Positions 19,001-22,000 of a stretch of DNA of 64,000 bases are shown here, in pieces; the stretch's first letter is position 1, and each line of letters starts with the position of its first letter. The position numbers and the translations under genes are program-made. Source of the DNA: Patiria pectinifera (Eukaryota; Echinodermata; Asteroidea; Valvatida; Asterinidae); NCBI GenBank assembly GCA_029964075.1, contig CM057149.1, positions 38,584,900 to 38,648,899 on the forward strand, written 5' to 3'. The notes under the pieces were generated by a model. The model ran no database searches. It saw only the letters and a list, made by a program, of their open reading frames with translations, and was not told the origin of the DNA.

Positions 19001-22000
19001 ACTCTCCTGTGTAAAGAAGCAGATCGAGTGGAAGCCTTGGTCAAGGTCTTTATCGAAAGTGCTAGTGCCTTCGTCGATAGTATCTGATATTGTAGCCGCA
19101 TGAGGTTGCTGTTTGCGCTTTGTACATAGCTAGTGCACAGGTTGTGTTTATGTTAGCAGAATACCATCATGGATTCTATCGACGAAGACCTTGACCAAGG
19201 CAAATTTGTGGTCTACTCAAAGGGCCAGTGTCATGGCGGTGCTAAGCTCAAAGAAATATTTGTTAACAGATGTACATGTAAACAAACAAAAATTAGTGCA
19301 CGTTGAATTTTGTTTGGCAATGTCTACAAACTATGTCAACTCTTCCATGGTGCACTGCAGGTAAACCAGGATTTGTTTGCTAATGACAGTTGATGTTTAT
19401 CGTGAATTACTTACATTGATTGCACCACAATGATTTGGCTTTCCTATACAGGTTTCTATGACTCAATTGTTCTGACTTGCAAACGAGTTTGGTAAGTTGA
19501 ATTTCTCGACAGGGGATGCAGAAAAATCTATCCAGTGCTCTCATTACATGCTGTCTTTTCCCTAAACACAGGCGGCGATATACGACAAATCGCTACGTCT
19601 CTCCAGCTACACGATGACAGGGGGCGATATGACCATGGGCCAGATCACCAATCATATGTCGGTCGACACCTCCAATGTTCTGAACTCGACGCAGTGGGTC
19701 CACTATGTCTGGTCCATTCCATTTTTGGTACGTTCCGTAAGATTTTTTTTTTTTCTTGCAGAAAGCTAACATATCCTTTGCTCTGTCAAAACAGGCAGCT
19801 ATTTATGAGAAGTCTCTGCGACTGTCTAGCTTTACGATGAGCGGGGGCGGTATGACCATGGGCCAAATTACCAATCATATGTCGACGGACACAACCAATG
19901 TTCAAACTGCGGTTCAGTACATCCAGTACATCTGGGGTATCCCCTTTCTGGTATGTACTGATGCCGGCGAGCTGTGCCTGGCACTAGACTAGACGTGGCT
20001 GCACTTTTGAGGTTTGGGTTGTTTAACAAACCTCTTGTATAGGTATCATCTTCACTACTAAAAAGCTATTTGATGCTTCTGCACTGTGCTTTCTGTTTCT
20101 CTACTCTTCTCTGATTTCAACAAACTGTTTCTTTATTCTACCATCTACCATGTGCTTTTGGCTTATCACATGCTCATGGTCAAATGTCAAAGGTCACACA
20201 CAATGCAATGACTGGACTCTATGCTGGGTGCACACTGGTGAAAAGGCCTAAACCCATCGCTGAGCTCATGAATAAAAGTTATACCTTCAAAATATTCTAT
20301 ATTAGAGAGTTCTGAGAGCCATAACATTGGGGTATTGAAGAGATATGGCAATGAACCTCTGGCCCGGACTCGGGGCTTCCAATTCTGAGCATTTTGGATG
20401 CAATTGGGCATGAAAGTGGCGCTATTTTTTGCATGTTGGAGGGATCGTTTTTCAAGATGGCTACTTTTCTGCTTTGGGAAAAATCGGGGTCGTTTTCTTT
20501 GGGTGGGAATTTCTCTAAAAGTTAATTGTCATCAACCCACCAAAGAATGAAAATAAAATAAATAATGACATGTTGATCATCATATTTCTGTGCAGCTTAA
20601 ATGCCTTTGAGAGTTTGAGTATTTTTTTTTAAAAATTGAATTATTTTTAAAAGAATTTTGAATTCTGGGCATTTAGCGCTAGTATCTATGGGAATTTCAA
20701 TGCAGGGTTGTACCCAGCTAGAATCACTGCTGAGCTGACTCACGAGAGCCCAGATACCACATCATACTGATTTGTGTCCTGTCATACTATGAGCAACTTT
20801 TGAGAGTGAAGTGAATTGCCATACTTAGACAGAATTGAAACCATTTGCTATGACATTCCTGCGTATATATCAGCTCTCCATCTCTAGTGGGGGCAATATT
20901 GAGCTGTCGACCTTTAACCCTAACCCCCTAGGCCCTCTGGCTCGGATGCAACCTCAATCCTGCAAAATCCTCCAATTGCCTCCAAGAAAAAATTGGATTC
21001 AGCCTCAATCCTTCAAAATCATCCGTTTTAGTCTGTGGAGGGTGACTACTGCCTCAATCCTCCAAAATCCTCTGCCAGTTACTGACTGCTATGGTTTGAA
21101 GCAGTGCGAGTGGCGTTTAGAAGCAGTGCGGATGAAATACGAGAAAAACACAGGGCTGATTTATGCATGGCTGAACATAACCAATGCAGGATATGGCCTA
21201 CTGCTTTGACATAATGCATCCTCCACAAAAAAAGTGATGCATCTGTGCCATTCATCCTCAATCCTCTAAAATCATCCAAAACCAACAGGAGGATTTTGGA
21301 GGATTGAGGAGGAGGATTGAGGAGGATTAGGGTTAAAGGTATAGTCCATCATTTGTAATTTGTGCATTTTGTTCGTTTGAAGTAACAGACATGCCCAAAA
21401 GAAGGGTGCTCAGAACAACTAACCTGATGAAATTCCTTATTGTATAAGTTCCTTATTATTCTTGGACATCTCAGAAAAGTATTAGAGTATGTTACACACT
21501 GTTTGATTCTTTCTTGAACCCGTCTTATTCTGCCATCAGATCATCGGCTACATGGTGATTCTGTACTTTGAGCTTGGAGTGGCTGCCCTGATTGGCTGTC
21601 TAGTCTTCTTCGTTACCATACCGATCCAGGTCGTCATAGCGAGGATGACTGCCAAATACCAGAAGACTGTCATGGTAGGTCTCTGAGCAGCTCTTGCGTT
21701 GTGTGTGTTTGTGTCACTTAGTCTCAGTGAAGACCTCTTTTTGACCTCCCGTCCTTGCTGTTTCCTCAGGAAAAATCTGACGAGCGTCTGAAGCGAACCA
21801 ATGAGTTGCTGCAAGGGATTAAGCTGATCAAGCTGTATGGGTGGGAAGACATGTTCTATACCTCCATCAGCAAAGTACGAGCCTTGGAGATCTTGACCAT
21901 GATGAAGGGGATGGGCTGGAGAATTCTGCTCAGTAAGCTTGAGAAATTTTTAAATATTCATGACATAGTGAACAAGTTCCAATAACAATTTGACTTTATT

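What the first reader, a model, noticed from the sequence alone, without database searches (positions are those of the whole stretch)
19572..19950. Tandem, probably mutually exclusive exons 5a/5b in a SUR-type ABC transporter
Two adjacent exons have identical length (156 bases) and phase, complete splice sites and 37/52 identical residues. Only 67 bases lie between them, which would hinder joining 5a to 5b. The first half (loop with GQITNHMS) is nearly constant. The second half, which leads into a TMD1 membrane helix, differs at 11 positions. Use of one or the other would change a membrane segment of the channel regulator. The known SUR variants I recall involve other exons, for example the terminal exons of SUR2, so this form may be undescribed.
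Basis: partly seen in the sequence, partly recalled or inferred. Interest (0 to 1): 0.85.

Follow-up and report, generated by a model that had tools for sequence, protein, structure and literature searches.

The report
Swappable membrane exon in SUR gene
A potassium-channel-regulator-like (SUR) gene of an unnamed animal carries two alternative copies of one small exon, 67 bases apart, that encode the same membrane segment in two versions; the layout suggests that each transcript uses one copy or the other, but this has not been seen in RNA.

Summary
Exons 5a (19572-19727) and 5b (19795-19950) are both 156 nt, phase 0, AG/GT-bounded, 67 nt apart, and identical at 37 of 52 residues. They lie in a SUR-type ABCC gene whose TMD0 matches only SUR1/SUR2 among ABC proteins of solved structure. 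5b looks like a maintained coding exon: 5a-5b dS about 1.6, dN 0.185.

One copy per mRNA is the likeliest output. The 52-codon unit matches exon 8 of human ABCC9, whose loss abolishes KATP function; a double copy would add a second coupling-helix/TM8 unit. The 67-nt intron is shorter than all 60 neighbouring-exon introns measured in the family (minimum 95), and its only YTNAY site lies about 41 nt from the donor, below the roughly 50-nt limit reported for vertebrate exclusive exons. The swap changes 2 of 5 TM8 positions of the SUR1 drug-pocket list.

Limits: no RNA, no second species, one complete pair in the family, and no Kir6-like channel found (four Kir genes, all nearest Kir2.2), so "channel regulator" is unproven. 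Alternative internal exons in ABCC genes are known (insect MRP); this form was not found in my literature searches.

The parts
12430..13029 (+). gene 1 (g1), first coding exon found: TMD0 of a SUR (ends approximate)
   Evidence: phmmer: 10 distinct SUR1/SUR2 sequences at 64-95 bits; the only other hit is an unrelated protein at E 0.12; coding score
14714..14930 (+). g1 exon 2 (ends approximate)
   Evidence: conserved with g2
16970..17176 (+). g1 exon 3 (TM6 region, by homology)
18715..18864 (+). g1 exon 4 (TM7 region, by homology)
19572..19727 (+). exon 5a: cytoplasmic loop with coupling helix 1 and first part of TM8 (aligned with SUR1 residues 393-444; helix names from established SUR1 topology)
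19728..19794 (+). 67-nt intron between 5a and 5b; one YTNAY site, CTAAC, with the A at intron position 42; AGs at 13-14, 33-34, 37-38 and 66-67; a second possible acceptor after intron position 34 (19761) would lengthen 5b by 11 in-frame codons
19795..19950 (+). exon 5b: diverged copy of 5a, same length, phase and boundaries
21540..21674 (+). g1 exon 6
21770..21931 (+). g1 exon 7
23188..23436 (+). g1 exon 8 (ends approximate)
24986..27918 (+). g1 NBD1: coding pieces at 24986-25057 and 27739-27918 (the second with LSGGQKQ); not fully modelled
   Evidence: coding score and translation; motif recognised by eye
31189..39107 (+). g1 TMD2: coding pieces at 31189-31338, 35864-35974 and 38979-39107 (a further weak one at 32243-32323); not fully modelled
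   Evidence: coding score and translation; recognised by eye
42635..42787 (+). g1 NBD2 piece ([16 protein letters not shown])
   Evidence: coding score and translation; motif recognised by eye
59463..59618 (+). comparison: single exon 5 of the neighbouring paralogue g2 (94% identical to 5a)
59619..59679 (+). comparison: start of g2 intron 5, homologous to the 67-nt intron of g1 to within 3 nt of where 5b would begin; no 5b after it
   Evidence: 53 of 61 aligned bases identical plus one 3-base gap; 0 of 200 shuffles as good

Best explanation
The gene is a SUR-type ABCC protein in which the exon for coupling helix 1 plus the first part of TM8 is duplicated in tandem. Each mRNA takes one copy (4-5a-6 or 4-5b-6). 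Shown from sequence: two complete, frame-compatible, diverged exons; long-term constraint between the copies; an unusually short separating intron. Inferred: (1) the donor of 5a and the branch point of 5b lie too close (about 41 nt) for both to be used at once, so 5a is not joined to 5b; (2) skipping both gives a dead protein, as loss of the matching human ABCC9 exon 8 does; (3) the choice is set by the relative strength of, and factors on, the two competing acceptors; (4) the two proteins differ in the part of TM8 that in SUR1 lines the pocket for sulfonylurea-type drugs and the Kir6 N-terminus, so the switch tunes ligand or partner binding and the coupling of TMD1 to NBD1, leaving the rest of the protein unchanged.
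For: Exon pair and joins. Constraint: 5a-5b dS 1.61, dN 0.185; 50 random hits on 5a leave 15 or fewer residue changes in 1 of 20,000 trials; changes private to 5b against 5a, g2 and g3 are 13 replacement and 11 silent, more silent than neutral (p 0.008-0.042 over nine settings). Intron: 67 nt against a minimum of 95 in 60 neighbouring-exon introns of the family and about 233 in 19 myosin-head introns; single YTNAY site CTAAC with the A at position 42. Precedent: OGDH exclusive exons with human branch points 25-41 nt from the donor, steric threshold about 50 nt (PMC7969005, passages). One copy needed: human ABCC9 exon 8 encodes Ala389-Gln440, and its deletion causes KATP loss of function, with no significant efflux for SUR2B (PMC6773855, passages). 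Pocket: W430, F433, L434, N437 and M441 are among the 20 SUR1 residues listed for the repaglinide site (PMC11942174, one passage) and fall on exon codons 38, 41, 42, 45 and 49 by the alignment; 5a has N,Q,W,Y,I and 5b T,Q,Y,Y,I.
Against: No transcript was seen. Flies and worms splice introns of this size (recalled), and the 50-nt limit comes from vertebrates. Joining 5a to 5b keeps the frame, so nothing but sterics forbids it. Only g1 has a complete pair; g2, g3 and g4 do without 5b. The excess of silent changes on the 5b branch is modest, and weaker when polarised with g4 (7 replacement, 6 silent; p 0.045-0.118). At 13 of the 15 differing positions both residues occur among 19 other copies, so the swap may be functionally mild. 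The pocket positions F433 and N437 are Q and Y in both forms, so drug binding as in SUR1 is not expected.
Confidence: 0.6

Rival explanations
1. 5b is a real but not strictly exclusive exon: 5a and 5b compete, and some mRNAs carry both (a 52-residue insertion) or use the upstream acceptor inside the 67-nt intron, which lengthens 5b by 11 residues.
For: All joins stay in frame; a T-run followed by CTTGCAG ends at intron position 34 and gives an open in-frame extension [11 protein letters not shown]; the same CTTGCAG is present in g2.
Against: The intron is 67 nt, below all 60 neighbouring-exon introns measured; a double copy would add a second coupling-helix/TM8 unit to TMD1, which has a fixed six-helix fold (established knowledge).
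Confidence: 0.2
2. 5b is a fossil: a once-used duplicate that is no longer spliced in, kept open by chance.
For: g2, the nearest paralogue, lacks 5b though its intron matches g1 nearly up to the 5b acceptor; 28% of random 50-hit copies of 5a stay free of stops.
Against: dN/dS 0.115 between 5a and 5b at dS about 1.6; 15 residue changes against 25.6 expected for 50 unconstrained hits; intact acceptor, branch-point-like site, donor and phase.
Confidence: 0.13
3. The choice is fixed: one copy is constitutive in all tissues and the other rarely used, so there is a duplicate but no regulated switch (5b could be the main form).
For: 5b is somewhat nearer than 5a to the exon 5 of the C11 paralogue (58% against 50%), so it is not obviously the derived copy.
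Against: 5a is the form kept by g2 and g3 (94% and 85% identical).
Confidence: 0.07

Closest known systems
Drosophila MRP1 homologue CG6214 (dMRP) with two variable internal exons (Grailles 2003: only its title seen, in the reference lists; a passage in PMC4234516 says that splice variants are reported for CG6214 and its orthologues in A. gambiae and Trichoplusia ni)
   Same: ABCC gene with variable internal exons used alternatively
   Different: an MRP-type transporter of insects, not a SUR; its variable exons are exons 4 and 8 with 2 and 7 copies (recalled, paper not read); whether one covers TM8 was not tested here
[quoted passage not shown]
   Same: splice variation in a SUR gene
   Different: last exon or exon 17, not the coupling-helix 1/TM8 exon; the passages seen mention no duplicate of human exon 8, the exon that matches this one
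Steric mutually exclusive exons: OGDH 4a/4b (PMC7969005, passages); alpha-tropomyosin (reference title)
   Same: tandem exons with a branch point within about 50 nt of the upstream donor
   Different: there the branch points were mapped by experiment, in vertebrates; here the site is predicted from sequence only

Membership tests
SUR (ABCC8/ABCC9-type) proteins | ABC core closer to SUR than to MRP/YCF1 | tested here: met
   exons 3-7 with 5a: SUR1 145.3 bits, SUR2B 142.9, YCF1 106.2, ABCC13 94.4, MRP1 93.3
SUR (ABCC8/ABCC9-type) proteins | SUR-type TMD0 | tested here: met
   10 distinct SUR1/SUR2 sequences at 64-95 bits; no MRP or YCF1 sequence at E up to 10
SUR (ABCC8/ABCC9-type) proteins | two TMDs and two NBDs in one protein | tested here: inconclusive
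   TMD1, NBD1, TMD2 and NBD2 pieces are in order in g1, but the whole transcript was not modelled
SUR (ABCC8/ABCC9-type) proteins | forms KATP channels with Kir6 | tested here: inconclusive
   the same four Kir genes found with both Kir profiles; all four best match Kir2.2, above Kir6.1 and Kir6.2; a divergent, intron-split or unassembled Kir6 is not excluded
Mutually exclusive exons | adjacent homologous exons of equal length and phase | tested here: met
Mutually exclusive exons | a feature that prevents joint inclusion | tested here: inconclusive
   67-nt intron with a predicted donor-to-branch distance of about 41 nt; shorter than 60 of 60 family introns; the frame does not prevent it
Mutually exclusive exons | transcripts with one or the other and not both | not testable with these tools
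   no RNA data offered
Mutually exclusive exons | pair conserved in other species | not testable with these tools
   the tool says that G000 has no relatives held; the other collections are of prokaryotes, phages, plasmids, viruses and metagenomes

The most novel reading that the evidence does not exclude
In an animal with an expanded SUR-like family and no recognisable Kir6, one SUR gene carries a splice switch that exchanges the pocket-lining start of TM8 as a cassette, so that one gene yields two receptors or transporters with different ligand or partner specificity: SUR as a family of switchable sensors not tied to Kir6 channels.
Probability: 0.15. Interest if true: 0.75.

Novelty: new variant of a known kind. 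Interest (0 to 1): 0.5.

Why it matters
If both forms are made, nature has built a clean segment-swap experiment in a SUR: two proteins identical except for coupling helix 1 and the start of TM8. This is the unit whose loss causes the human ABCC9 syndrome AIMS, and in SUR1 it holds five of the residues listed for the drug pocket. Comparing the two forms would test directly what this segment does. It would also add a SUR to the ABCC genes diversified by alternative internal exons. The wider question, what an expanded family of about 20 related genes (not each tested as SUR) does in an animal without an evident Kir6, may prove the larger one.

Tried and rejected
A decayed 5b in g2: MAFFT lined up the region after the g2 intron start with 5b, but local alignment of 5b with the g2 intron is no better than shuffles (196 of 200 reach the score; with laxer scoring 146 of 500). 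Rejected as a visible relic; g2 lacks 5b.

Dating 5b as older than the gene copies: at silent sites 5b is far from all four other copies compared (dS 1.4-3.1), while 5a-g2 is 0.16 and 5a-g3 0.71 (only about 35 silent sites, near saturation). But g1-g2 dS is 0.85 in exon 1 and only 0.01-0.31 in exons 2-8, which suggests gene conversion, so the small 5a-g2 value may understate the age of the gene split. The DNA tree (21 rows) rejects 5a+5b as sisters only marginally (p 0.0486) and does not reject 5a+5b+g2 (p 0.315); the protein tree rejects neither (p 0.383, 0.334) and keeps 5b with 5a, g2 and g3 (85/87, not starred). Kept as likely, not shown. The trees and pair counts used 21 of the 27 matches: L057 (partial copy), L061 (different length) and L062-L065 (short or remote) were dropped.

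The half-and-half pattern as evidence for a switch: rejected, common in the family. A tandem-duplication footprint in the flanks: weak upstream (2 of 300 shuffles reach it), none downstream (52 of 300). A third copy in the window: none. Assembly error or allele as the source of 5b: unlikely at dS 1.6. Myosin introns as a size yardstick: my first count was given only 63 of the 75 rows and gave 18 introns; the recount with all 75 rows gives 19, minimum 233, plus two matches read through an intron of about 216-219 nt. Species: not identified; a COX1 profile search, meant to read the mitochondrial code, did not complete.

Literature: ten searches, judged by the titles and abstract starts listed, plus passages of seven papers. 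No listed title or abstract start concerned mutually exclusive exons in a SUR. One search (mutually exclusive splicing + sulfonylurea receptor) gave one unrelated paper; (echinoderm + ABC transporter + sulfonylurea receptor) none; one search matched 879 papers and showed 12. The library holds open-licence PMC papers only.

Full report
What is there. The window is C21:38584900-38648899 of an unnamed 613.5-Mb genome in 1020 contigs. Two exons lie at 19572-19727 and 19795-19950. Both are 156 nt, keep phase 0, follow AG and precede GT, and are 67 nt apart. They share 37 of 52 residues; 4 differences lie before and 11 after the loop GQITNHMS. The match has E = 1.6e-24 in the window. A profile of 19 other exon-5 copies finds these two and the g2 copy in the window, and nothing else above 7.7 bits.

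The gene. Exons 3-7 with 5a match SUR1 (145 bits) and SUR2B (143) above YCF1 (106) and MRP1 (93). The first coding exon found, a TMD0, matches SUR1 and SUR2 and no other ABC protein at E up to 10. Further down the same strand lie pieces of NBD1, TMD2 and NBD2 in order (recognised by eye), so g1 looks like a full SUR from about 12.4 kb to beyond 42.7 kb. I did not model the whole transcript. A paralogue, g2, starts at about 55.5 kb in the window, and g3 and g4 follow outside it.

The family. The 5a protein has 27 matches in the genome at E up to 10 (a lower bound by the tool's own note). All 27 loci were scanned about 1500 bases each way at E up to 0.001: only g1 has two complete copies, and one gene on C11 has a complete copy plus a partial one. 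On a joined map of 46 of 57 loci plus the window there are 24 exon-5 places: 22 gene copies (5a among them), 5b, and the C11 partial copy. So the complete pair is particular to g1 in this genome. Whether each of the 22 is a SUR rather than an MRP was not tested.

Is 5b alive? Between 5a and 5b, dS is 1.61 and dN 0.185 (ratio 0.115; about 35 silent sites). Fifty random hits on 5a give 25.6 residue changes on average, and 15 or fewer in 1 of 20,000 trials; 28% stay free of stops, so an open frame alone proves little. Changes private to 5b against 5a, g2 and g3 are 13 replacement and 11 silent, more silent than neutral (p 0.008-0.042 over nine settings); polarised with g4 they are 7 and 6 (p 0.045-0.118). 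So the pair as a whole is clearly constrained, and 5b by itself probably so.

Age. 5b is distant at silent sites from the four copies compared, which suggests that it arose before g1, g2 and g3 separated. But exon 1 of g1 and g2 differs far more (dS 0.85) than exons 2-8 (0.01-0.31), a sign of gene conversion, and the trees are weak. The first 61 bases of g2's intron match the 67-nt intron of g1 to within 3 nt of the start of 5b, then homology stops (53 of 61 bases, one 3-base gap; 0 of 200 shuffles). The simplest reading is that g2 had the arrangement and lost 5b; conversion from g1 is another.

Why exactly one. First, the 52-codon exon matches exon 8 of human ABCC9 (Ala389-Gln440) in length and place. 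The passages seen report loss of KATP function on its deletion and, for SUR2B, no significant efflux (PMC6773855; the SUR2A sentence was cut in the passage). That SUR1 residues 393-444 are the same unit rests on the alignment and on equal length and the same last residue, Gln; the SUR2 alignment itself was not printed. So skipping both should be useless. Second, including both keeps the frame but would insert another coupling helix and half helix. Third, the separating intron is 67 nt, while 60 introns between neighbouring exons of this family run from 95 nt up and 19 in myosin heads from about 233. Its only YTNAY site is CTAAC with the A at position 42, 25 nt before the intron's end, and the nearest upstream AG is at 37-38. 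Human OGDH exclusive exons use branch points 25-41 nt from the donor, under a steric threshold of about 50 nt (PMC7969005, passages). That this limit holds in this animal is inference.

What the swap changes. Exon codon n corresponds to SUR1 residue n + 392. The residues listed for the repaglinide site include W430, F433, L434, N437 and M441, beside the first residues of Kir6.2 (PMC11942174, one passage); they are codons 38, 41, 42, 45 and 49. 5a has N, Q, W, Y, I there and 5b T, Q, Y, Y, I (sequences): two of five change. Neither form keeps the SUR1 residues, so drug binding as in SUR1 is not expected; the claim is only that the same wall of the cavity is exchanged. At 13 of the 15 differing positions both residues occur among 19 other copies, so each form looks like a normal family member.

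Is it a channel regulator? The genome shows four Kir genes, the same four with the membrane and the cytoplasmic profile. All four match Kir2.2 best, above Kir6.1 and Kir6.2; the best solved match is not proof of orthology. No Kir6 was found, so KATP function is open.

Verdict. A real, constrained exon pair, most likely mutually exclusive by sterics; a new variant of a known kind. Not shown: any transcript, any second species, any function.

Noticed in passing
C18 of the same genome: L066-L069 (also L070-L073): Only four Kir genes are found with either Kir profile, and all four match Kir2.2 best, although the genome has 22 places with a SUR-like exon 5 (not each tested as SUR). What these SURs work with is unclear.
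   Followed up: partly
window 12430-13029 and 55563-56162: TMD0 exons of g1 and g2 are 59% identical (dS 0.85), while exons 2-7 are 90-98% identical (dS 0.01-0.27; exon 8 80%, dS 0.31): gene conversion over the ABC core, or an exchanged TMD0. If so, partner-binding domains diverge while the core is kept alike.
   Followed up: partly
window 57930-58130: The last third of exon 4 of g2 with its donor is repeated twice more downstream (82% over 94 bases at 57930-58023 and 84% over 57 bases at 58074-58130, against the g1 sequence): partial exon duplicates in an intron.
   Followed up: no
L051/L057 (C11:14129117-14129397, minus strand): Another related gene has a partial tandem copy of the same exon 5 (about 35 of 52 codons) with its acceptor, nearly identical, so recent. 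Exon 5 has been duplicated more than once in this family.
   Followed up: partly
window 19746-19761: A second possible acceptor (CTTGCAG) after a T-run would lengthen 5b by 11 in-frame residues; the same CTTGCAG is present in g2, which has no 5b.
   Followed up: partly
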